22,581 nucleotides of DNA, taken from the IMG/VR virus record IMGVR_UViG_3300006112_000057, positions 1-22,581 of that record. The stretch is one strand, 5' to 3'. The translations under genes were made by a program, and so were the position numbers. The notes below the pieces were generated by a model. The model was not told the DNA's origin. It made no database searches and was given only the letters and a program-made list of their open reading frames with translations. Shown here one piece after another: positions 2,619 through 13,878 of the stretch (positions are counted from its first letter, which is position 1; each line of letters begins with the position of its first letter). This DNA is from a virus.

Positions 2619-2917
2619 TTGAGGGAATCGATTACTGCTTCATCTATCCTAAAGATGATGCAACTATAACCCACATCAAACTACTGAGCGGTAGATACAA
2701 AGATGTGGTGTTCAAATATGGCAAAGTTAAAATAACGGAAGAAGTTGATGGCCCCCATTTACATTTCGCTTATGATGTGTTAGAATCGCCAGATATTAAG
2801 TCTAAAAAACTTATGACTGATGCCGACTTTAAACAATTTGCAGGTGATATGTTGGTAGAACTGATGACTACCAACCTTGATGAGGATATTATAGATGAAA
2901 CTAGAACAAACGATTAA
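2615..2917 (+). CDS. conserved phage protein, unknown function
   Basis: A 100-aa acidic protein starting IEGIDYCFIYPKD. I recognise it as resembling small genes found between uvsX and gene 41 in cyanophage-type genomes, but no function is known to me. No membrane segment or cysteine cluster is present. It starts inside the uvsX stop (ATGA overlap). Its last codons overlap, in another frame, an 8-codon reading frame that copies the start of gene 41, and its stop overlaps the stop of the convergent endonuclease gene (TTAA, 2914-2917). Its C-terminus was therefore probably set or changed when the endonuclease gene arrived. In an uninterrupted relative the protein may be longer. Confidence 0.75.
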   Translation: MIEGIDYCFIYPKDDATITHIKLLSGRYKDVVFKYGKVKITEEVDGPHLHFAYDVLESPDIKSKKLMTDADFKQFAGDMLVELMTTNLDEDIIDETRTND

Positions 2918-2921
2918 TTAA
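2895..2921 (+). pseudogene. fossil 5' end of gene 41
   Basis: Reading ATG at 2895 gives MKLEQTIN-stop. The live gene 41 at 3576 begins MRLEQTILK. The nucleotides also match: GAACAAACgATT here against GAACAAACaATT at 3586-3597, preceded in both by an A/T-rich GGATATTAT-like stretch. This copy has the better SD (GAGG, 2882-2885). The endonuclease gene lies exactly between the two copies. The simplest reading, an inference, is that the endonuclease gene entered at the start of gene 41 and left a cut-off copy of the original start on the left side. A chance match of six of seven residues directly at the insertion junction seems unlikely. Confidence 0.6.
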
Positions 2922-3498
2922 TTCCACATTTATCAAAATGCCATTGTTTCATTTGAGGAAAACCACCAATTTTATTACAGTGGGGACATTGAATTTTTTG
3001 TTTTGGTTTTCCAATTTTAGATTTTGATATATTTTGTTTATGTTCTTCGGTTAAAGGCAAAACACAATTAATTCTAGGTTTTCTTAATAATAATTTTCTT
3101 TCTTCACTTAATGGTTTGCCTTTATTTTTTGCAATTTGATTCCCTTTCATCATATCACTTCTCTTTTTTTTCTCATCATCTGATTGTATTCTATGTAAAC
3201 CAAACACACCTTCTCCTCCCAAAGTGGAATTGTATCCCCACTTAAATGAATCATATTCTTTTATAAAATATGGTTCCATAACTTTTAATGTGTGTTGCCT
3301 ATCTTTAGATTGATATAAAATAGACCATTCAAAATTTTCCCAACCATGTTTTTTTATGGCTTTGTGGAAATGGAATGTTGAATTATGTTTTGCTTTGGAT
3401 TTATGCTTTTTTTGCCTATTAGGCCATTGACTGTCGAAACCAACATAAACTTTACCGTTTACTGTATTGACACATTTGTAAATTGTATATATAATCAT
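2914..3498 (-). CDS. GIY-YIG homing endonuclease
   Basis: Free-standing homing endonuclease of 194 aa, comparable with the T4 Seg proteins. The GIY-YIG module has YTIY (residues 4-7), VYVGF (18-22), a likely catalytic Arg28 in NRQKKHK, Glu75 in MEPYFIKEY and Asn90 in GYNSTLGGEG. DNA-binding parts follow: NUMOD3-like KGNQIAKNKGKPLSEE (118-133) and HKQNISKSKIGKPK (153-166), then a zinc-finger-like CPHC...HFDKC (C171, C174, H187, C191). It is the only gene on the minus strand and looks richer in A/T and T-runs than its neighbours, which fits horizontal arrival. It has its own late promoter (3559-3566) and a strong SD (AAGGAG, 8 bases before ATG). All expected active-site residues are present, so it is probably active. 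Confidence 0.93.
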   Translation of the reverse strand: MIIYTIYKCVNTVNGKVYVGFDSQWPNRQKKHKSKAKHNSTFHFHKAIKKHGWENFEWSILYQSKDRQHTLKVMEPYFIKEYDSFKWGYNSTLGGEGVFGLHRIQSDDEKKKRSDMMKGNQIAKNKGKPLSEERKLLLRKPRINCVLPLTEEHKQNISKSKIGKPKQKIQCPHCNKIGGFPQMKQWHFDKCGIN

Positions 3499-3575: not shown

Positions 3576-4967
3576 ATGCGACTTGAACAAACAATTTTAA
3601 AGAACCTGATTTACTCAGATGAATACCTGAGAAAGGTTCTTCCTTTCCTAAAGAGCGAATACTTCACAGATAGAACAGAACGGTTGATTTATGATGAGAT
3701 TAAGTCCTTCACAGAAACTTACAATACTACACCATCAGTTGAGGCGATTGAATTGGCCGTCAAAGAAAGGCGTAATCTCACAGATGACGAAGTGGAGAAG
3801 TCGGAAACTTATCTTAAAGAAATTGAAAGTTCTAACCGAGAAACAACCCAAATTCAGTGGCTCACCGATAAGACTGAAAAGTTTTGTCAGGAGAAGGCCA
3901 TTTACAATGCCGTATTGGGTTCCATTTCAATACTCGATGGAAAAGACAAGACGCATGACAAAGGTCAGATTCCGAAAATTCTATCCGATGCTTTAGCCGT
4001 AACTTTTGATACCTCAGTTGGTCATGATTATTTGGAGAACAGTGATGAACGATATGAATTCTACCACAGAAAAGAAGAACGAATCCCATTCGACTTGGAC
4101 TATTTCAACAAGATTACTAAAGGTGGGTTACCTGGTAAAACTCTCAACATTGCTCTTGCTGGGACTGGTGTGGGTAAGTCTCTTTTCATGTGTCATGTTG
4201 CTGCAGGTGCTATGTCTCAAGGCCGTAATGTTTTGTACATCACGATGGAGATGGCTGAAGAAAAGATTGCCGAACGTATTGATGCAAACCTCCTTAATGT
4301 TACATTGGATGATTTAACAAGTCTTCCAAAAGAAATGTATGACAAGAAGGTTGAGAAACTGAAGGCCAAGACCACAGGTAAATTGATTATCAAAGAGTAT
4401 CCAACCGCTTCGGCATCCGCAACACACTTTAGGTCTTTATTGAATGAACTTAATCTTAAAAAATCGTTTCGTCCTGATATTATCTTTATTGATTATCTTA
4501 ATATATGCTGTAGCTCTCGCATTAAAGCCGGAGCCAACATTAACTCTTATACCTATGTCAAATCAATTGCCGAAGAATTGCGAGGTCTTGCCGTTGAGTA
4601 CGGAGTCCCAATTGTTTCTGCAACTCAGACCACAAGATCCGGTTTTACAAGTTCCGATCCAGGACTTGAGGACACAAGTGAGAGTTTTGGTTTGCCAGCA
4701 ACCGCTGACTTGATGTTCGCCTTGATTACATCTGAAGACTTACAAGAACTTGGCCAAATCATGGTCAAACAATTAAAGAATCGTTATAATGATCCTACAA
4801 TGTATAAACGATTCACAGTCGGTGTTGATAGAGCAAAGATGAAACTGTATGACGTAGAACAATCTGGTCAAGATGGTTTGGTTGATGCAGGCCAAGATAA
4901 ACCATTGAACACATTTGGTGATAGAGAGAAACCTAAGAAAAAAGGTTTTGAAGGATTTAAAGTATGA
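3576..4967 (+). CDS. 41: replicative DNA helicase gp41 (DnaB-like)
   Basis: Hexameric 5'-3' replicative helicase of the T4 gp41/DnaB family, which unwinds DNA ahead of gp43 and works with primase. At 463 aa it is close to T4 gp41. The N-terminal helical domain covers about residues 1-150. The RecA-like motor has Walker A AGTGVGKS (195-202), the catalytic ITMEM element (222-226), Walker B DIIFIDYLN (301-309) and an ATQTTRSG segment corresponding to motif 4. The tail is basic (KPKKKGFEGFKV). The start MRLEQTIL is duplicated as a fossil at 2895. The present start has only a weak SD (GGA at 3568-3570), unlike the fossil copy, so expression may have changed after the endonuclease gene inserted. 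The stop overlaps the next gene by ATGA. Confidence 0.95.
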   Translation: MRLEQTILKNLIYSDEYLRKVLPFLKSEYFTDRTERLIYDEIKSFTETYNTTPSVEAIELAVKERRNLTDDEVEKSETYLKEIESSNRETTQIQWLTDKTEKFCQEKAIYNAVLGSISILDGKDKTHDKGQIPKILSDALAVTFDTSVGHDYLENSDERYEFYHRKEERIPFDLDYFNKITKGGLPGKTLNIALAGTGVGKSLFMCHVAAGAMSQGRNVLYITMEMAEEKIAERIDANLLNVTLDDLTSLPKEMYDKKVEKLKAKTTGKLIIKEYPTASASATHFRSLLNELNLKKSFRPDIIFIDYLNICCSSRIKAGANINSYTYVKSIAEELRGLAVEYGVPIVSATQTTRSGFTSSDPGLEDTSESFGLPATADLMFALITSEDLQELGQIMVKQLKNRYNDPTMYKRFTVGVDRAKMKLYDVEQSGQDGLVDAGQDKPLNTFGDREKPKKKGFEGFKV

Positions 4968-6070
4968 TTTTGACTAAAGAAGATGCTATTCATTGTGCAA
5001 ATGCCTTTCAGGATTACTTTGGTAATTTTGAACGTATTGATGAATACATGCGTGACCAAAAATTGAACTCTCTGGAAGAAATACCAACATCTTTGTTTCC
5101 TCCAGAAGATGATTTGTTCTCCGATTTCTCTATGCATCCTAATGATATGGATATCGAAGTGTGTGAAATTCCTAATGAAACATGGGAAACACTTCTAGCA
5201 ATTACATCATCTCACATTAACATTCGTCCTGTTGGCCGAAGCATTCATTTGGCCGTAAGAGAAAGAAAGACGCAACAGTTTCTAGGATTCATTCGTTTGG
5301 GTTCTCCTGTTATCAACTGCAAACCTAGAAATGAAATGTTGGGTCAAGTGTTTACTCAGAAACCTGAATGGGGTAAACGATTCAACGATTCTGCTATGAT
5401 GGGTTTTGTGATTGTTCCAAGTCAACCATTTGGTTTCAATTACCTTGGCGGTAAACTCTTGGCAGCAATCTGTACTTCACATACAGTCCGTGAGATTGTC
5501 AACAAGAAGTATGGAATGAACTTGTGTCTCTTTGAAACAACAAGTTTATATGGTTCTTCAAAACAAGTCTCACAGTATGATGGTATGAAACCATTCATTC
5601 GTTATAAAGGCTTGACAGAATCTGATTTCCTACCTATGATGCATGGTAAACCTTACTCAGATTTACGTGACTTTGTTCAAAGTAAAGTTGGACCTTTGGT
5701 TGAAGACAATGCTTCTAGTAAGAAGTTGAAGATATCACAACGTATAATTGCCTTGACAAAAGCCTCATTAAAAGGTACAATTGAGGGTGATGCATTTCTT
5801 AAAACGATTGAGAACGCTAAGAAGTTGACAGAACAGAAACGTTACTACATTTCTAACTATGGATATAGCAACTTTGTAGACTACATTTGTTGTAAGACTG
5901 ATACATTGATTAAAGACAAGGAGAACTATGATAAGTTTGAACTAGATAACATTATACAATGGTGGAAAAACAAGGCTTCAAACCGATATGAAACACTGAA
6001 AGGCGAAGGTCGGTTGAGAACCGAATTGGAGGTTTGGACCTCTGGAAAAGAGATTCAAATCATTAGATAA
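4964..6070 (+). CDS. DruA/DUF4338-like protein
   Basis: A 368-aa protein that I recognise as conserved in marine T4-like phages. Residues about 88-220 resemble the DUF4338 core of DruA from the Druantia defence system: RPVGRSIHLAVRERKT, then FLGFIRLGSPVINCKPRNEM (107-126), a hydrophobic FVIVPSQPFGFNYLGGKLL segment, VREIVNKKYGMNLCLFETTS (175-194), and a YDGMKPFIRYKGLT segment (205-218) matching the usual 'Y-x-G/A...G-x-T' end of the family. The C-terminal 140 residues are helical and basic, possibly DNA-binding. T4 has primase gene 61 next to 41, but I see neither a zinc-binding CxxC motif nor a TOPRIM core here. The ATGA overlap couples it to the helicase, so a role in replication or DNA processing is plausible. 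The homology rests on motif memory and has not been searched. Confidence 0.6.
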   Translation: MILTKEDAIHCANAFQDYFGNFERIDEYMRDQKLNSLEEIPTSLFPPEDDLFSDFSMHPNDMDIEVCEIPNETWETLLAITSSHINIRPVGRSIHLAVRERKTQQFLGFIRLGSPVINCKPRNEMLGQVFTQKPEWGKRFNDSAMMGFVIVPSQPFGFNYLGGKLLAAICTSHTVREIVNKKYGMNLCLFETTSLYGSSKQVSQYDGMKPFIRYKGLTESDFLPMMHGKPYSDLRDFVQSKVGPLVEDNASSKKLKISQRIIALTKASLKGTIEGDAFLKTIENAKKLTEQKRYYISNYGYSNFVDYICCKTDTLIKDKENYDKFELDNIIQWWKNKASNRYETLKGEGRLRTELEVWTSGKEIQIIR

Positions 6071-6092: not shown

Positions 6093-7190
6093 ATGGCTTA
6101 TACTTTCTTTCCAACTACAGCCACAGAAATTAAGAAGACGTTAAAAGGCGATGTGAAAAAAATTGATGATATTATTTCAGTATTTGCAATACTGAAGGAT
6201 AAGTTTAAACATGTTAAAACTCCCATCAATGTTGATCCCAAAGCCATAAGTAAAATCAACGTATCGAGGGAATTACAGGAAGATATTAAACTAAAAGATA
6301 TCCAGACTGAAGTTCTCAGAAAAAGAAAAACGTCAACCTTCAATATAACAATGAAATTTGGTAATGGATCTTCTGGGGGCCGAGGAGTTCAGAACAAAGG
6401 CAATGCATACGAAGGACAACTAGCAGACGCTTTAAGAAAATGGTGGGCAGGAGAAAACATTACTGATCCAAAATTAAAAGAAGCGGTAGACTCAATAGTT
6501 GAACTACACGATTTAAAAAAGTGTAAAACGTTAGAGGTTAAAGAAGTTGGAGAATTAAATAACAAACGACCATTTGTGTTTACACCAAAGGTTCTTATTT
6601 CATCAAAAATTCAAGTAACTGATAACAATTTGGGGCCCGTTGTTACTGACATTACTTTGATTTGTGATGGTAAAAAAGAAATTTACTTGAGTTTGAAAAC
6701 CGGTGGTACAGTTACCTTCTTCAACTCTGGCATTCGAACCGTTCTTTCACCCGCAGAAATTAAAACTGGCGTTATAACCAATTCTGATGGTTTAAAAATT
6801 TTGGATATGTTTAATATCAATGATGCACTTTTCTGTGACATTTTTAATGGTAAATTGAAGAAAGGTTACTCTGAAGATATCTGGCAAAGAATGACATCAA
6901 AACAAAAAACAAACCTTAAAGACTTTTTAATTTCTGGTGTCGGCCATGGTTATACAATCGTTCATAAACTGTCTGGTAAAACAGAAGTCTATATGATTGA
7001 CAAAAAATACATGACTGAAGCTGCAACACCAAAATCTTGTACTGTGTATTACGGAGGTAAAACAGGAACAGGTAAACGTATTGATATGGAAATTGAAACT
7101 GGTCACTACATATTGAAACTAAACATGCGTGACACACAGGGTGGTGATGGTTATCCAACTCGAATGATGTGTGACTATTCTTATCTCTAA
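6093..7190 (+). CDS. possible PD-(D/E)XK nuclease-like protein
   Basis: 365 aa, starting MAYTFFPTTATEIKKTLKGD. I recall similar unassigned proteins in cyanophages. After a variable N-terminal half there is a glycine-rich GNGSSGGRGVQNKGNAYEGQL stretch with Glu107 in a helix (NAYEGQLADALRKWW), then Asp186 (VVTDITLICDG) and a strand ending YLSLKTGG with Lys202. E...D...(S)xK is the layout of PD-(D/E)XK nucleases, with Ser in place of the usual Glu/Asp two residues before Lys. A role as endonuclease, for example in host DNA breakdown or recombination, is an inference. The SD is GAGG five bases before ATG. A putative late promoter precedes it. The 16 bases after its stop are an inverted repeat leading into the glycan cassette. 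Confidence 0.5.
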   Translation: MAYTFFPTTATEIKKTLKGDVKKIDDIISVFAILKDKFKHVKTPINVDPKAISKINVSRELQEDIKLKDIQTEVLRKRKTSTFNITMKFGNGSSGGRGVQNKGNAYEGQLADALRKWWAGENITDPKLKEAVDSIVELHDLKKCKTLEVKEVGELNNKRPFVFTPKVLISSKIQVTDNNLGPVVTDITLICDGKKEIYLSLKTGGTVTFFNSGIRTVLSPAEIKTGVITNSDGLKILDMFNINDALFCDIFNGKLKKGYSEDIWQRMTSKQKTNLKDFLISGVGHGYTIVHKLSGKTEVYMIDKKYMTEAATPKSCTVYYGGKTGTGKRIDMEIETGHYILKLNMRDTQGGDGYPTRMMCDYSYL

Positions 7191-7206: not shown

Positions 7207-7908
7207 ATGACAGCAACAGTGATTATACCAACAACAGGTACACCTGACCTTAAGAAGGCAATTGAAAGTGTTATCTCTCAAACATACATGACAACTTGTT
7301 ATGTTGTATGTGACGGCGAACAACACCTTGGAAAAGTTAAGGTCATCGTTGGTGAATATGGTAATAAGGTCAAACTCGCTAATCTTCCAATCAACGTTGG
7401 TGCAAATGGTTTCTATGGCCATCGAGTATATGCAGCTTTCACACACTTAGTCAATACTGATTATGTACTATATCTCGACCAAGACTGTTACATGGACAAA
7501 AACCATGTATTCTCACAAATTGAAAACATCAAGAAGAAAAACCTTCAATGGTCCTATTCATTAAGAAAGATTGTGGACAAAGATGGTAATTATCTCTGCA
7601 ACGATGACTGTGAATCACTAGGTAAATGGAAATGTTTTCAAGATTACCACCACATAGACACTAATTGTTATTGCCTTAAAACGGAAATTGCGATAAAATT
7701 GGCGAGTGCATGGCATGGTGGATGGGGCCAAGATAGGGTATTCCTAAATGCATTATCAACACACTTTAATGATTATGATTGCACAGGTGAATACACAATT
7801 AACTACAAACTTGCTGGTAATGAAGGTTCTGTTAAACCAGAATTCTTCTTACACGGTAACGAAGTGATGAATTCTCGTTATGAAGGAAAATTACCGTGGA
7901 AAAAATAA
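7207..7908 (+). CDS. family 2-like glycosyltransferase
   Basis: A 233-aa GT-A fold enzyme that probably transfers a sugar from a nucleotide donor. The N-terminus, ATVIIPTTGTPDLKKAIESV, is the typical GT2 opening strand and helix. The donor/metal DxD motif is D91-Q-D93 in YVLYLDQDCYM, and HGGWGQDRVF (around 175-184) corresponds to the acceptor-side W-G-x-D region. No membrane segment is present, so it is cytoplasmic. It opens a block of nine overlapping genes that all look like sugar or surface chemistry. The acceptor cannot be told: phage fibre or capsid protein, modified DNA base or host polysaccharide are all possible. Confidence 0.85.
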   Translation: MTATVIIPTTGTPDLKKAIESVISQTYMTTCYVVCDGEQHLGKVKVIVGEYGNKVKLANLPINVGANGFYGHRVYAAFTHLVNTDYVLYLDQDCYMDKNHVFSQIENIKKKNLQWSYSLRKIVDKDGNYLCNDDCESLGKWKCFQDYHHIDTNCYCLKTEIAIKLASAWHGGWGQDRVFLNALSTHFNDYDCTGEYTINYKLAGNEGSVKPEFFLHGNEVMNSRYEGKLPWKK

Positions 7909-8657
7909 TCAACAATCAAAATTGGGATAAAATCAGTGAAGACTTCTCAAAAGCAAAACCTTTTAATCATGTTGTAATTGATGATTTTTTTACCGAGGAA
8001 GTTGCACATAATATATTTGCAGGTATGCCAGGTTATGATGAAAATACTGATGCAAAATACGACAATGCAATTGAAAAGAAACGTACAATTCAAAACTGGA
8101 CCAAATTCTCCAAAAATGTTTATAAGGCATTGTCATATCTGGTAAGTGAACCATTTGTTGTTAAGCTTGCACGTATGACCGAAGAATATGATTTGGTTCC
8201 GGATTACGGTCTACATGGTGGAGGCATTCATATGCATCAATCTGGAGATTATCTAAATGTGCATTTAGATTATGATATACATCCAAAAATGGACATGAAA
8301 CGTAAACTGAATTTGATTGTATACTTAAATCCAAACTGGAAAAAAGAATGGGGTGGTAACATTGGTTTATGGTCACATGACAAAACATCTAAACAACCAA
8401 AAGCTTTGGTTGAGTCCATTTGGCCAAAGTTCAATCGTGCAGTATTGTTTGACACAACACAAAATTCATGGCACGGTGTAACCGAAGGCATCAATGCACC
8501 TGAAGGACAATACAGAAAAAGTTTAGCAATCTATTATCTCATTCCAACAGATGACATAGATAATAAGAGACAGAAGGCTTTGTTTGTTCCTCGTGAAGAA
8601 CAAAAAGGCGATGATGGTGTTATGAATTTGATTAAAACTAGATCAGGATTGAAATGA
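7896..8657 (+). CDS. 2OG-Fe(II) dioxygenase (prolyl 4-hydroxylase-like)
   Basis: 253 aa. Non-haem iron oxygenase that uses 2-oxoglutarate and O2 to hydroxylate a substrate. The iron triad is visible: H123-x-D125 in NVHLDYD and H193 in NSWHGV, with R207 in QYRKSLAIYYL as the likely 2-oxoglutarate-binding arginine. The N-terminal PFNHVVIDDFF opening is typical of this family. The start is GTG at 7896 with SD AAGGA eight bases upstream, and it overlaps the glycosyltransferase by 13 bases. Such enzymes are common in cyanophages and other marine phages. Its place in a glycan cassette suggests that it hydroxylates a sugar or a protein to be glycosylated, but the substrate is unknown. Confidence 0.9.
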   Translation: MEKIINNQNWDKISEDFSKAKPFNHVVIDDFFTEEVAHNIFAGMPGYDENTDAKYDNAIEKKRTIQNWTKFSKNVYKALSYLVSEPFVVKLARMTEEYDLVPDYGLHGGGIHMHQSGDYLNVHLDYDIHPKMDMKRKLNLIVYLNPNWKKEWGGNIGLWSHDKTSKQPKALVESIWPKFNRAVLFDTTQNSWHGVTEGINAPEGQYRKSLAIYYLIPTDDIDNKRQKALFVPREEQKGDDGVMNLIKTRSGLK

Positions 8658-9502
8658 AGAATTTAATTATTGGTGGTTATACAAACTACGGAATCAATCA
8701 ACTCAAACCTTGGGTCTTGTCTGCTCTAGAAGTTGCAGATGAAGATACCAATGTTGTCTTGGTTGCAGGCAATACCTCACAACAAACATTACAATGGTTG
8801 CACGAACAAGGTGTGATTGTTGCACCAATGCAGATGGTGGACAATATTCCACCACATGTGTTACGTTTCTTGTCAATCTATCACTTCTTGCGTCACAACT
8901 GGATGAATTATCGTTATGTTGTTACAACAGACGTTAAGGATGTTTATTTCCAATCTAGTCCTTTTGACATAATGAAAAGTATGGAAAATCTTGGAAACAA
9001 TCTTGTCATTGCATCTGAAGGATTGAAATACAAAGATGAACCATGGGGTGATGATAACCTCAAACAAGCATATGGTCCTTACGTCTATGGACAATTCAAA
9101 GACAATGAAATCTATAACGTTGGAACATTTGGTGGCACATCCGAATATGTAAAAGATATGGTGTTCAACATATTCACCAATGCTATCAATAGGCCAATTC
9201 CTATCTGTGACCAAGCAGTGTTCAACGTTCTAATCAACACACAACCATACAAAGACATTGCACAAATAACCGTTGATTGGGCTTGTGAAGCTGGTACTGT
9301 TGCCGATCCCACCAAGATGAATTATTTTAGACCAAACTTGCTGTGTGACGAACCAACAGTAAAAGACGGTTTGGTGTATTATAAAGATAAGTTATTCCCA
9401 ATTGTACATCAATACGACCGTGTACCAGAATGGAAAAAATTTGTTCAACAAAAGTATGAACAAGACGATGAATCGAAAATGTTTATTTATAGGACAACAT
9501 GA
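8654..9502 (+). CDS. putative glycosyltransferase (GT-A-like)
   Basis: 282 aa, starting MKNLIIGGYTNYGINQLKPW. The core RYVVTTDVKDVYFQSSPFD (87-105) carries D93-V-K-D96, a DxxD variant of the donor-binding motif, preceded by the RFLSIYHFLR helix. ICDQAVFNVLI (around 193-203) is the acceptor-side D-Q motif. This pattern is shared by glycosyltransferases that use nucleotide sugars, including plant-type nucleotide-diphospho-sugar transferases. I cannot name a CAZy family. It overlaps both neighbours by 4 bases, so it is translated in series with the dioxygenase and the methyltransferase. Confidence 0.7.
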   Translation: MKNLIIGGYTNYGINQLKPWVLSALEVADEDTNVVLVAGNTSQQTLQWLHEQGVIVAPMQMVDNIPPHVLRFLSIYHFLRHNWMNYRYVVTTDVKDVYFQSSPFDIMKSMENLGNNLVIASEGLKYKDEPWGDDNLKQAYGPYVYGQFKDNEIYNVGTFGGTSEYVKDMVFNIFTNAINRPIPICDQAVFNVLINTQPYKDIAQITVDWACEAGTVADPTKMNYFRPNLLCDEPTVKDGLVYYKDKLFPIVHQYDRVPEWKKFVQQKYEQDDESKMFIYRTT

Positions 9503-10068
9503 TGAGTGATATAATTACTTTTAACACAGTTACACAGGCTTTTGGAGAGCAAAAAATGTTTAAATGTTCAGGTTACGGCCTTGGTGAAATGATTAAAGAC
9601 ATGACCCAGGTTAGAGGGTTGGAAATTGGTTGTGACATTGGCGACACAACACACTTTTTATTGGATATCAACAAGAACCTAGAATTGGTATCAGTTGATC
9701 CTTATGAAAATTATGTTGATTGGAATGGAAGACCTTTGAACGAAAGACAACAAGTTTTTGAAACTATGTCTGATCGTATGGAAAAATTTAAACCAAGATT
9801 CAGTTTGGTACATAAAAACTCAGATGATGCATCCATTTTATTTGCTGATGAGGAATTTGATTTTATCTTCATTGATGGTTTACACACATATGAACAGTTA
9901 ACTAAAGATTGTGCCAACTATTACTCCAAGTTAAAAACTGGTGGTATTTTTTCCGGCCATGATTTTACAGCAATTGAAGGTGTCAATAGAGCCGCAAAAG
10001 AATTTGCTGCAAAGGTTGGTAAAGAAATTCTAACAACAGAATGTGATGTCTGGTATTGGATCAAATGA
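9499..10068 (+). CDS. class I SAM-dependent methyltransferase
   Basis: 189 aa, one Rossmann domain. Motif I is LEIGCDIG (41-48), followed by VSVDPY (64-69), whose Asp67 should bind the SAM ribose, and EFDFIFIDGLHTYEQ (119-133) and GGIFSGHDF (148-156). The IDGxHxYE and GGxxxGHD pattern fits the Methyltransf_24-type sugar/small-molecule O-methyltransferases rather than DNA methylases, since there is no DPPY or NPPY. It most likely methylates a sugar or hydroxyl made by the cassette. Two overlapping starts are possible (9499 or 9502), differing by one residue. Confidence 0.85.
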   Translation: MMSDIITFNTVTQAFGEQKMFKCSGYGLGEMIKDMTQVRGLEIGCDIGDTTHFLLDINKNLELVSVDPYENYVDWNGRPLNERQQVFETMSDRMEKFKPRFSLVHKNSDDASILFADEEFDFIFIDGLHTYEQLTKDCANYYSKLKTGGIFSGHDFTAIEGVNRAAKEFAAKVGKEILTTECDVWYWIK

Positions 10069-10751
10069 AAAATTGTATAGTATTATCTGGTCAGTATAGA
10101 ACATTTGACCAAACATGGGAAAACATTAAGACATACATTGATGCAAATGAGATGGATGTCTATTGTCACTTATGGTCGACCGATGAGAGAGAAATCAACA
10201 ATATACAAGAACGATTGAAACCAGTAAAGATTTTGGCTGAAGATTTTTCTGAATATGAAAATGTTTTTTTAGATATTGAAAAAAGAGTAGTTGCAAAAAA
10301 TCCAAAACCAAAAACAATCGATAGCATTTCAAAAAATGCATCTATGAATTATAGTAGATTCAAAGCTTATGGTTTGATTGATAGTGAATACGACAATCTT
10401 TCTTATTGCAGATACGATTTAGGATTCAATCCACCTTTCAAATTTACAGAAGTTGGATTCATTGTCACTCCATTGGAAGAATCGTATAACCTGATTTCGG
10501 ATATTTTTGCTGTTATGCCTTTCAAATGGGCAAATGCTTATTTCCTGTACAACAACTATGAACACCTACATTCAACTCAATTTGAACCTGAGTTTGAAGA
10601 TTGGTTAAGAAATGTAAAGAAATATCCTGAGGTGGATATTAAGATCCATAAGGAACAAAGATATTGTCCACACATGATGTTATTGCGAAACTTGTTTCTT
10701 AAAAATACACCATTTGATATCGTTAACATTCCAGTATATCTTCAAAGATGA
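10065..10751 (+). CDS. glycosyltransferase-like protein, paralogue A
   Basis: About 228 aa from the ATG at 10065, chosen over an upstream TTG because ATG overlaps the preceding stop as ATGA like most genes here. It opens MKNCIVLSGQYRTF, a pattern shared with the next gene (MKIALCFTGQARSF). It has DVYCHLW (around 33-39), matching DVYIHTW in the neighbour, and a central YCRYDLGFNPPF matching IKTRTDYALNVQIPF. The two are therefore paralogues that arose by tandem duplication or were acquired together. I know such proteins as phage or bacterial surface-glycan enzymes of uncertain class. The R-x-D may be the donor site. The function is inferred from context. Confidence 0.6.
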   Translation: MKNCIVLSGQYRTFDQTWENIKTYIDANEMDVYCHLWSTDEREINNIQERLKPVKILAEDFSEYENVFLDIEKRVVAKNPKPKTIDSISKNASMNYSRFKAYGLIDSEYDNLSYCRYDLGFNPPFKFTEVGFIVTPLEESYNLISDIFAVMPFKWANAYFLYNNYEHLHSTQFEPEFEDWLRNVKKYPEVDIKIHKEQRYCPHMMLLRNLFLKNTPFDIVNIPVYLQR

Positions 10752-11437
10752 AAATAGCATTATGTTTCACTGGCCAAGCCAGGTCATTCCAAAAGGGATT
10801 CGAATACTACAAAAAGAATCTATTGAATCACTATAACGTAGATGTTTACATTCATACCTGGAAGTTTGATGGTGAAGAAAAACTTATTGAATTGTATGAA
10901 GCAACTAAAACGATAACGGAACCTGTTTTGGTTACTGATGCTGACACAAAGTATACTAATACACCAAACGCACAAAAGTATCCACCAAGGTTCACCTATT
11001 CTGCATTGTATTCTATAAATGAATGTCGTAATTTGATGATGAGTTCTGGAATTGAATATGATTGGGTCATAAAAACAAGAACAGACTATGCATTGAATGT
11101 TCAGATTCCTTTTGAACAACTCGATAACACCAAGTTATACATTCCAAATTGTAGAATGGTACCTGAACGTGATTTTGGTAATGACCAGTTTGCTTTTGGT
11201 TCACAAAGTACCATGGACAAATATATGTCTACGTTCCAAAACATGGATAAGTATTATGATGCTGGTGCACAATATATTGGTGAAAATATGATGAGTGCCA
11301 ACTTGCATGAACACAACTTACATGGTGAAAATCTTGTATATGTTAACATGAATAATCCATTTCCACCTGGTGCACACAATGGCACTTGGCACTCTTTGAT
11401 TCGTAATGATTATGACAACTGGACCAAGAATAGTTAA
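10748..11437 (+). CDS. glycosyltransferase-like protein, paralogue B
   Basis: 229 aa. The N-terminus MKIALCFTGQARSF and DVYIHTWKFDG match the preceding gene. The core YDWVIKTRTDYALNVQIPF has the R-T-D triad expected at a nucleotide-sugar site. NDQFAFGSQSTMDKY (around 143-157) and GENMMSANLHEHN are acceptor-side segments. A family name cannot be given with confidence. It overlaps the previous gene by ATGA and the next by about 32 bases, an unusually long overlap in this block. Confidence 0.6.
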   Translation: MKIALCFTGQARSFQKGFEYYKKNLLNHYNVDVYIHTWKFDGEEKLIELYEATKTITEPVLVTDADTKYTNTPNAQKYPPRFTYSALYSINECRNLMMSSGIEYDWVIKTRTDYALNVQIPFEQLDNTKLYIPNCRMVPERDFGNDQFAFGSQSTMDKYMSTFQNMDKYYDAGAQYIGENMMSANLHEHNLHGENLVYVNMNNPFPPGAHNGTWHSLIRNDYDNWTKNS

Positions 11438-12173
11438 AAAGTTAAGTGGCCATTCAGGCAGTGAAATCTATTTGATGGAAAATTCTAATGGTCTATTTGT
11501 AAGAAAAATTGGTAACACAGAAAGAAACAGGAAAAGACTAATACCGTTACAAGCAGTTGGTTTTCCTGTTCCTAAAATTTATAATGTTGATGGTGATTCT
11601 TTTGACATGGAATACTTCCATGGCCTAGACATGAAGAATTATCTGGTGTCACATAACACCAATCAATTAGAAGAATTCTTATTCAAAACACTAACAAAAC
11701 TAAAAAGTATCTGTGTAGACAAAGCAAAAGACTTTACTGAAACATACTACCAGAAACTTGCTTGGATGGACACCTCAACTGAGGCATTTCCTTTTACCAA
11801 GCAACAACTGATTGATAAGTTACCTAAGATTTTACCACACACATCTTACCTTGGTGACTTGACATTAGAGAATATCATTTATACAATAAACGGATTCAAA
11901 CTGATTGATCCTGTAACCATTGAATACGATTCTTATGTATTCGACATAGCAAAACTTAGACAAGACCTAGAATGTCGCTGGTTTCTTAGACGAGAACCAA
12001 CCAAACTAGGTGCTAAGTTACACAACATTCAAAATAAACTATTTGAAGATTTCCCAGAAGCAAACAACGATTACCTTTTAATACTAATGTTGTTGAGAGT
12101 GTACCTACATACAACAAAAGGTGATTTAGAATATAACTTTATAATGGATGAAATAAAAAGATTATGGAAATAA
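11406..12173 (+). CDS. APH/choline-kinase-like phosphotransferase
   Basis: 255 aa, protein-kinase-like fold of the aminoglycoside phosphotransferase/choline kinase type. Residues about 15-75 form a small N-lobe: GSEIYLMENSNGLFVRKIG has a likely ATP-binding lysine at 34, and FDMEYFHGLDM is the hinge. The catalytic loop is SYLGDLTLENIIY (147-159), with D151 and N156, and the metal-binding LIDP has D168. The family's usual HGD histidine is replaced by Leu (LGD), which may lower or change activity. With the following nucleotidyltransferase/HAD gene it suggests a two-step activation: phosphorylate a small alcohol or sugar, then attach a nucleotide. The start is ATG at 11406 or 11412. Confidence 0.75.
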   Translation: MIMTTGPRIVKKLSGHSGSEIYLMENSNGLFVRKIGNTERNRKRLIPLQAVGFPVPKIYNVDGDSFDMEYFHGLDMKNYLVSHNTNQLEEFLFKTLTKLKSICVDKAKDFTETYYQKLAWMDTSTEAFPFTKQQLIDKLPKILPHTSYLGDLTLENIIYTINGFKLIDPVTIEYDSYVFDIAKLRQDLECRWFLRREPTKLGAKLHNIQNKLFEDFPEANNDYLLILMLLRVYLHTTKGDLEYNFIMDEIKRLWK

Positions 12174-13189
12174 TTGTACCAGCAGCAGGTCTTTCTAGTC
12201 GTTTCCCTAACATGAAACCGAAGTATCTACTATTTGACTACGAACATAAAATGATGTTGGAGAAAGCGGTTGCAGATTATCCCGATTGCAACATCACTGT
12301 TGGCATTCTCAACGAACACGATTCTGCATTTGATGCTGAGAAGTTTATCAACCATCAATTTGGTGGTAAAGTCAAAGTTGTCATAATCAAAGAACTGACA
12401 AAAGGTCCAGCGGACACAGTTTACCAAATCTTACAAATGGCTGGCATATCTGATGAGGCTGAGTTCTTGGTAAAAGACTGTGACAGTTTCTTTACTCACA
12501 CAAAAACACCAGGAAACTATATCTGTGTTTCTGATATTGCGGAACATGAAGTTTTGAATCGACTTAGAGCAAAAAGTTTTGTTGTATCTAATGAACAAGG
12601 CATCATTACCGATATTATTGAGAAACGTGTTGTATCCAATAAGTTCTGTGTTGGTGGTTATAAGTTTGAATCTGTTGCAGAATACAAAAAAGCATTTGAA
12701 TCTATATCAACCGAAAAAGAAATCTTTGTCTCTGATGTAATTTCAGTTATGTTACACGAAGGAAAGATTTTCACCGAGAAACTTATATCTAACTATGTTG
12801 ATGTGGGTACAGCACAAGAGTGGTTCAAGTACAATGACAAACCTGTAATCTTCTGTGATATTGATGGCACAATTATTAAGGCTCAAAGACGAGTGGGTAT
12901 CGATTCCTATGATTCTGATCCAGAAGTGTTGCCAAAGAATGTTGAAAGGTTGTTAGAATATGAACGAAATGGATCATTGATTATATTTACAACCGCCAGG
13001 GAAAAAAGTCAAGAGTGGGTCACAAGAGCAATGTTGAGTAATTTAGGATTCAAATCTAAAGAATTGATTATTGGTCTTCCAAATGCAAGAAGAATAATCA
13101 TCAACGATTTTGATTCCAGCAATCCACATCCTAGAGCTGAAGCCGTCAACATTTATCGTAATACCGATACATTGGATTATTACTTATGA
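12164..13189 (+). CDS. sugar/alcohol-phosphate nucleotidyltransferase fused to HAD phosphatase
   Basis: 341 aa, two domains. Residues 1-225: an NTP_transferase of the MobA/LicC/GlmU type with IIVPAAGLSSRFPNMKPKYL (3-22), the nucleotide-binding G-x-x-R...KP-K, then FLVKDCDSFF (101-110) for metal and VGTAQEW near its end. Residues 226-341: a HAD hydrolase with motif I FCDIDGT (230-236), motif II IFTTARE and motif IV INDFDSSN. The fusion would couple nucleotide activation with a phosphatase step, as in pathways that make CDP- or GDP-activated sugars or alcohols. The substrate is unknown. It overlaps the kinase gene by 10 bases and the next gene by ATGA. Confidence 0.85.
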   Translation: MEIIVPAAGLSSRFPNMKPKYLLFDYEHKMMLEKAVADYPDCNITVGILNEHDSAFDAEKFINHQFGGKVKVVIIKELTKGPADTVYQILQMAGISDEAEFLVKDCDSFFTHTKTPGNYICVSDIAEHEVLNRLRAKSFVVSNEQGIITDIIEKRVVSNKFCVGGYKFESVAEYKKAFESISTEKEIFVSDVISVMLHEGKIFTEKLISNYVDVGTAQEWFKYNDKPVIFCDIDGTIIKAQRRVGIDSYDSDPEVLPKNVERLLEYERNGSLIIFTTAREKSQEWVTRAMLSNLGFKSKELIIGLPNARRIIINDFDSSNPHPRAEAVNIYRNTDTLDYYL

Positions 13190-13878
13190 GTTTTATACCA
13201 GATAAAAACTTATTCCTTGTAACCTCGGCAATTAAATCTCTGAATACAAGGTTTTGGAGTCACGAACAGAGATTTAAACAAACAGTATTGACGGTTGAAT
13301 CTATCCGAAAACGAGTTCCAGAAGCAATCATTGTTTTGGCTGATGCATCTCTTACATCATTGACGGAAGAAGAACATAAACAACTTCAACCATATTTGAA
13401 TGCTTTTATGGATATGAATCGAGTTCCGGACGTTAACAAATTCTCAAGTAGTGGCCAACAGGCCATGGCAGAAAGTGTATTGTTATTTAATGCATTGCAC
13501 CTTTTAAAACAACAACCTTGGTTTAAAGACGTTAAAAGAATTTTTAAGATTTCTGGTCGTTCCATATTGGAACCAGAGTTTAAACTAAGTGATTACGATA
13601 ACTTATTTGGTAAATATGTGTTTAAGAAACGTATTCCAACTTGGATGCCTCAAGTAACACATGGTGCTACAGACTTATTGATTACTCGTTTGTTCTCTTT
13701 TTGCCCGTCCTTGGTTGATAATTACCTAGAAGTACTACAATATAACTTACCTTTGTTCAATTTTATGGACTTTGAACATGCTCATTTTGTCAACATTCCA
13801 AAAGAATATCTAGTAGAATTTGATAAAATTCACTGTTATGGTTGGTTGGCAGGCAATGGCCAAGTTGAAAATTATTGA
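13186..13878 (+). CDS. glycosyltransferase-like protein
   Basis: 230 aa. It opens NLFLVTSAIKSLNTRFWS, followed by RFKQTVLTVESIRKRVPEA, a helix then a strand (IIVLADAS) as in glycosyltransferase-A folds. The central RIFKISGRSILEPEF has the same placing as the R-T-D segment of the paralogues at 10065 and 10748, suggesting a distant relative. There is no clear DxD. It ends the glycan cassette. The next 104 bases hold a hairpin and a late promoter, so this is probably the end of one transcription unit. Confidence 0.55.
   Translation: MSFIPDKNLFLVTSAIKSLNTRFWSHEQRFKQTVLTVESIRKRVPEAIIVLADASLTSLTEEEHKQLQPYLNAFMDMNRVPDVNKFSSSGQQAMAESVLLFNALHLLKQQPWFKDVKRIFKISGRSILEPEFKLSDYDNLFGKYVFKKRIPTWMPQVTHGATDLLITRLFSFCPSLVDNYLEVLQYNLPLFNFMDFEHAHFVNIPKEYLVEFDKIHCYGWLAGNGQVENY

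What the first reader, a model, noticed from the sequence alone, without database searches (positions are those of the whole stretch)
4964..6070. DruA/DUF4338-like gene inside the phage replication operon
Seen: VGRSIHLAVRERKT, FLGFIRLGSPVINCKPRNEM, VREIVNKKYGMNLCLFETTS and the YDGMKP...RYKGLT segment follow in the order I know for DUF4338, the conserved part of DruA in the Druantia antiphage system. It overlaps gene 41 by ATGA, where T4 has primase. Inference: the defence protein may derive from, or share ancestry with, a phage replication or DNA-processing protein, and the phage form may reveal the core activity. It could instead act as a decoy against the defence system.
Basis: partly seen in the sequence, partly recalled or inferred. 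Interest (0 to 1): 0.7.

Follow-up and report, generated by a model that had tools for sequence, protein, structure and literature searches.

The report
DruA-like acyltransferase-fold gene beside phage replication genes
A T4-like phage carries, right behind its replication helicase gene, a relative of the bacterial anti-phage protein DruA whose predicted shape is that of an acyl-transferring enzyme and most resembles phage Mu's DNA-masking enzyme Mom, so it may chemically mark new phage DNA; DruA-like genes in such phages were already on record.

Summary
ORF 4964-6070 (368 aa) overlaps gp41 by ATGA and is a true DruA/DUF4338 relative: Pfam PF14236 29.4 bits (cut-off 27), and profile-profile homology to Druantia DruA proteins over 256 columns (E 1e-23; controls negative). 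It is not a Druantia system (no druE-like gene in the window), and it does not replace primase, which lies elsewhere in 10 of 12 long relatives. The AlphaFold2 model (pLDDT 88) has a GNAT acyltransferase fold; for both phage paralogue types the top-ranked solved structure is phage Mu Mom (Z 9.4), the DNA-modifying enzyme, though sequence gives no Mom link. The gene sits in a few fixed slots, mostly beside replication or recombination genes: after gp41 (81/81 loci), between gp44 and gp62, after gp43, beside gp47/46. It is patchy (31 cultured-phage records) and under purifying selection. Best guess: an accessory acyltransferase that masks phage DNA from host defences; activity and substrate unproven. 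DruA-like proteins in Synechococcus phages (Phold paper, 2026) and DUF4338 as a GNAT domain (2024) were already published, so this is a new member of a known kind. Which form came first, phage or defence, is unresolved.

The parts
4964..6070 (+). DruA/DUF4338-family gene, 368 aa, GNAT-fold protein (phrog_19197)
   Evidence: PF14236 29.4 bits; phrog_19197 full length; AlphaFold2 pLDDT 87.9; GNAT fold
5276..5335 (+). Residues 105-124, QFLGFIRLGSPVINCKPRN region with G108 and R122, kept in Druantia DruA
5423..5461 (+). Residues 154-166, QPFGFNYLGGKLL: invariant loop and helix start; candidate cofactor-binding (GNAT motif A) element, role inferred
   Evidence: invariant in the phage set; P155, G162-L165 shared with DruA
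5531..5581 (+). Residues 190-206, FETTSLYGSSKQVSQYD: shared TTSxxG..SxY signature; Tyr205 is a candidate general acid, role inferred
4951..4956 (+). AAGGAT, ribosome-binding-like site inside the end of gp41
   Evidence: sequence
3576..4967 (+). gp41 replicative helicase, overlaps the DruA-like gene by ATGA; directly upstream in 81 of 81 clade loci
   Evidence: phrog_19

Best explanation
The gene encodes a GNAT-fold acyltransferase of the DruA/DUF4338 family, expressed with the phage replication proteins, that most likely acts on nucleic acid: working like phage Mu Mom, it would transfer a small acyl or acyl-like group to bases of freshly made phage DNA and so mask it from host nucleases or sensors. 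Shown: homology to DruA, GNAT fold in AlphaFold2 models with Mom as the top-ranked solved structure, fixed slots mostly beside replication or recombination genes, purifying selection, patchy distribution, no replacement of primase. Inferred: enzymatic activity, DNA as substrate, masking as the benefit.
For: Homology to Druantia DruA, E 1.3e-23, controls negative. Models with pLDDT 87.9 and 82.7 for two paralogue types; phage Mu Mom 8bv8 ranks first for both, Z 9.4, 176 and 184 aligned residues. Slots after gp41 81/81 and before gp62 69/80, after gp43 or beside gp47/46 in others. dN well below dS. Patchy: 31 records against 376 Synechococcus and 61 Cyanophage records with gp41. DUF4338 called a GNAT domain in PMC10853773.
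Against: No sequence link to Mom, with a shallow Mom profile. For the window model the other GNATs are within 1 Z of Mom, so tied. Catalytic residues of Mom could not be mapped. No modified base in these phages is known to me. The best-known GNAT substrates are small molecules and proteins. The Mosig type sits beside peptide deformylase and mazG or a peptidase, not beside the polymerase genes.
Confidence: 0.45

Rival explanations
1. It is a protein-modifying GNAT: it acylates a host or phage replication or transcription protein to steer takeover or replication.
For: GNAT fold with SpeG, AAC(6')-Ib and other small-molecule or protein acetyltransferases close behind Mom; slots beside clamp loader and helicase genes. 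Phage GNAT Rac acting on host RNA polymerase is on record (PMC7824862).
Against: The closest relatives by sequence are DruA proteins of a DNA-centred defence system; patchy presence speaks against a core role.
Confidence: 0.25
2. It is a catalytically altered DruA homologue used against host Druantia or similar systems, as decoy or inhibitor.
For: Clear homology to DruA.
Against: Strong conservation of the shared core residues and very wide spread. A survey of 297 Pelagibacterales genomes found long DruA relatives in 5, and in the two loci opened no DruE lay beside them, so the proposed target was not seen in these hosts. Cyanobacterial hosts were not surveyed.
Confidence: 0.1
3. It is a phage-borne defence gene used against competing phages (superinfection exclusion).
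For: Relative of a defence protein; accessory.
Against: No druB-E partners; expression with replication genes would hit the phage itself unless it is protected.
Confidence: 0.08
4. It is a replication factor that has taken the primase place or helps the helicase.
For: Overlap with gp41.
Against: gp61 primase lies elsewhere in 10 of 12 long relatives; GNAT fold; not found in most gp41-bearing cyanophage records; different slots in different clades.
Confidence: 0.07

Closest known systems
DruA-like proteins of Synechococcus phages (Phold paper, NAR 2026, PMC12774648)
   Same: Same protein family: S-PRM1, the paper's example, is a hit here (44.987% identity).
   Different: The paper reports structural similarity at 12.7-17.1% identity in six phages; in the passages read here nothing is said on operon slots, paralogues or Mom.
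DruA of Druantia type I (PF14236, PADLOC DruA)
   Same: Homologous over 256 columns with shared core residues.
   Different: No druB-E partners; about 18% identity; separate branch of the tree.
phage Mu Mom (8bv8, phrog_1384)
   Same: Top-ranked solved structure for both phage paralogue types; both are phage accessory genes.
   Different: No sequence match; Mom's own activity is not shown for this family.
phrog_19197 (PHROGs)
   Same: Full-length match, E 5e-140.
   Different: No difference; PHROGs gives no function.

Membership tests
DruA / DUF4338 (PF14236) | Profile score over the curated cut-off | tested here: met
   29.4 bits, cut-off 27
DruA / DUF4338 (PF14236) | Homology to DruA proteins encoded in Druantia loci | tested here: met
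   hhalign probability 99.6, E 1.3e-23, 256 columns; controls
Druantia type I system | druA together with druB-druE, the last a large helicase | tested here: not met
   No ORF of DruE size in the window; the neighbours are gp41, uvsX, gp43 and others. The window is a 22.6 kb fragment.
GNAT superfamily | GNAT fold | tested here: met
   AlphaFold2 models; most leading PDB rows are GNATs
GNAT superfamily | Acyl-CoA loop (Q/R)xxGx(G/A) | tested here: inconclusive
   QPFGFN fits except the last position
GNAT superfamily | Acyl transfer activity | not testable with these tools
   needs an assay
Mom family | Mom fold | tested here: inconclusive
   Ranks first for both models, but tied with other GNATs for one
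Mom family | Sequence match to Mom | tested here: not met
   hhalign probability 0.3 against a shallow Mom profile; no phrog_1384 match at E 0.01
Mom family | Adenine modification in DNA | not testable with these tools
   needs nucleoside mass spectrometry
T4 gp61 primase | Match to primase models | tested here: not met
   None among Pfam and PHROGs matches; a phrog_47 primase lies elsewhere in relatives

The most novel reading that the evidence does not exclude
T4-like cyano- and pelagiphages carry a replication-coupled, DruA-related enzyme that installs a so far undescribed acyl modification on phage DNA, and Druantia DruA is a bacterial version of the same chemistry; this would give DruA a biochemical activity.
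Probability: 0.2. Interest if true: 0.8.

Novelty: new member of a known kind. Interest (0 to 1): 0.45.

Why it matters
I found no paper that gives DruA an activity. A widespread phage homologue with cultured hosts is a tractable protein for finding it, and the Mom resemblance suggests a specific, cheap test: nucleoside mass spectrometry of virion DNA. If positive, it would reveal a DNA modification in abundant marine and freshwater viruses and link a defence protein to a self-protection enzyme.

Tried and rejected
Primase replacement: rejected. Restriction-modification pair with the 6093-7190 ORF: it was found next in 29 of 81 loci, and it occurs in cyanophages where no DruA-like gene was detected, so not claimed. 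Solved-structure search by sequence, single protein and profile: nothing significant. NCBIfam: no match for the window protein. Plain Foldseek against PDB: no match under E 0.001, top rows mostly GNATs. Mom-DruA link by sequence: none; a motif resemblance between Mom and DruA seen by eye was left out as untested. Rooting of phage versus defence forms: not possible with the long branches. Rows labelled 'cell' inside the phage clade: L269, L271-L274, L277 and L278 carry T4-type phage genes nearby, so they are probably phage or chimeric contigs; no such gene was seen for L270 and L275.

Full report
Observation. The ORF at 4964-6070 is real: 368 codons, an ATG overlapping the gp41 stop (ATGA), an AAGGAT site 7 nt upstream. 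It scores 29.4 bits against Pfam DruA, just over the cut-off of 27; relatives score up to 80 bits, and one of seven tested, S-T4, 21.6. PADLOC DruA models match weakly (E 4e-6). PHROGs places it full length in phrog_19197, of unknown function. dN against relatives is 0.08-0.17 with dS near saturation.

Distribution. 31 phage records carry a relative: 25 Synechococcus, 3 Pelagibacter, 1 Cyanophage and 2 marine single-cell viruses. By comparison 376 Synechococcus and 61 Cyanophage records carry a gp41 relative, so the gene is accessory; the records are partly redundant. HTVC008M holds one of each type, so these are paralogues.

Family. The comparison set holds P. putida and N. watsonii DruA encoded in loci with DruE. 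Profile-profile comparison gives probability 99.6, E 1.3e-23 over 256 columns; without the Mosig-type rows it is 98.6 and 5e-16, and five unrelated phage families give less than 1%. Columns kept in all or nearly all rows of both sides include P59, G91, G108, R122, P155, G162-G163-K164-L165, T192, S194, G197, S203, Y205, G216, T218 and R341. A maximum-likelihood tree separates the Druantia and other cellular DruA rows from the phage rows (100/99); the two phage types fall on separate, well-supported branches. Long branches make finer joins and any root unsafe. Several rows from genome bins inside the phage clade carry T4-type genes nearby.

Fold. AlphaFold2 gives pLDDT 87.9 for the window protein and 82.7 for the Mosig type. 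In the PDB second look most leading rows are GNATs, and phage Mu Mom (8bv8) ranks first in both: Z 9.4, rmsd 3.9 over 176 residues, and Z 9.4, rmsd 4.3 over 184. Mom is a full Z unit ahead only for the second model; for the first, other GNATs are tied. The plain Foldseek search had no match under E 0.001. A published analysis already names DUF4338 a GNAT domain (PMC10853773). No sequence link to Mom was found, with a shallow Mom profile. Among predicted viral structures the best matches include proteins of giant viruses (Faunusvirus E 2.8e-15, Yasminevirus, Dasosvirus).

Place. In all 81 window-clade loci counted the gene follows gp41. In the cyanophage clade gp62 lies downstream in 69 of 80, with gp44 or the small ORF behind it upstream in 62 of those; the rest are contig ends or other neighbours. 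The Mosig type lies after peptide deformylase in 74 of 80, before mazG or a peptidase. HTVC008M and L274 have it right after gp43, and S-B68 and L269 near gp47. A gp61 primase is found elsewhere in 10 of 12 long relatives, so the gene does not stand in for primase.

Hosts and the decoy idea. Of 297 Pelagibacterales genomes, 5 hold a long DruA relative. In the two loci opened it lies beside a GHKL ATPase gene, and no DruE-sized ORF was seen. Cyanobacterial hosts were not surveyed.

Mechanism. A GNAT fold beside replication genes, in an accessory gene that is kin to a defence protein and whose top structural match modifies DNA, is best read as an acyltransferase acting on phage DNA at replication. 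Tyr205 is a candidate general acid and QPFGFNYLGGKLL the candidate cofactor loop; both are inference from the order of elements. Activity, substrate and benefit are unproven. Protein acylation is the main rival; decoy and superinfection exclusion are less likely.

Known work. Phold (NAR 2026, PMC12774648) reports DruA-like structural matches in six Synechococcus phages, with S-PRM1 as its example. Some records already call these proteins methylcarbamoylase mom (S-SCSM2R) or iron-binding protein (S-CREM1). What is added here is sequence-level homology, the two paralogue types, the fixed slots, the primase check, and Mom as top-ranked match for both types.

Noticed in passing
L348:4300-8114 and L349:4020-7815 (two Pelagibacterales genomes): A two-gene pair: a GHKL/HATPase_c_3 protein of about 600 aa (weak PADLOC MzaB match) directly before a long DruA relative of 658 aa (PADLOC DruA E 2e-118 for L348), with no DruE-sized ORF in the 18 kb opened; possibly an undescribed defence module.
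   Followed up: partly
BFVD A0A3G4ZXG3 (Faunusvirus), A0A5K0UAJ3 (Yasminevirus), A0A3G4ZRA1 (Dasosvirus): Uncharacterised giant-virus proteins match the fold of both phage models (E 2.8e-15 and 4.4e-18 for Faunusvirus).
   Followed up: no
6093-7190: Neighbour ORF, phrog_8438, very weak PDDEXK_15 match (E 0.06) and a TDITL...SLK stretch; may be a nuclease-fold protein. It was found next to the DruA-like gene in only 29 of 81 loci.
   Followed up: partly
2914-3498 (-): GIY-YIG-type homing endonuclease gene on the opposite strand, just before gp41.
   Followed up: no
7207-13878: Run of genes including a family 2 glycosyltransferase, a 2OG-Fe(II) oxygenase and a methyltransferase match, behind the replication genes.
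   Followed up: no
L278 (CP070751.1): A 5.16 Mb 'Thermoplasmata chromosome' record holds a cyanophage-type DruA with gp62, regA, hsp20 and gp43 relatives downstream; probably a chimeric assembly.
   Followed up: no
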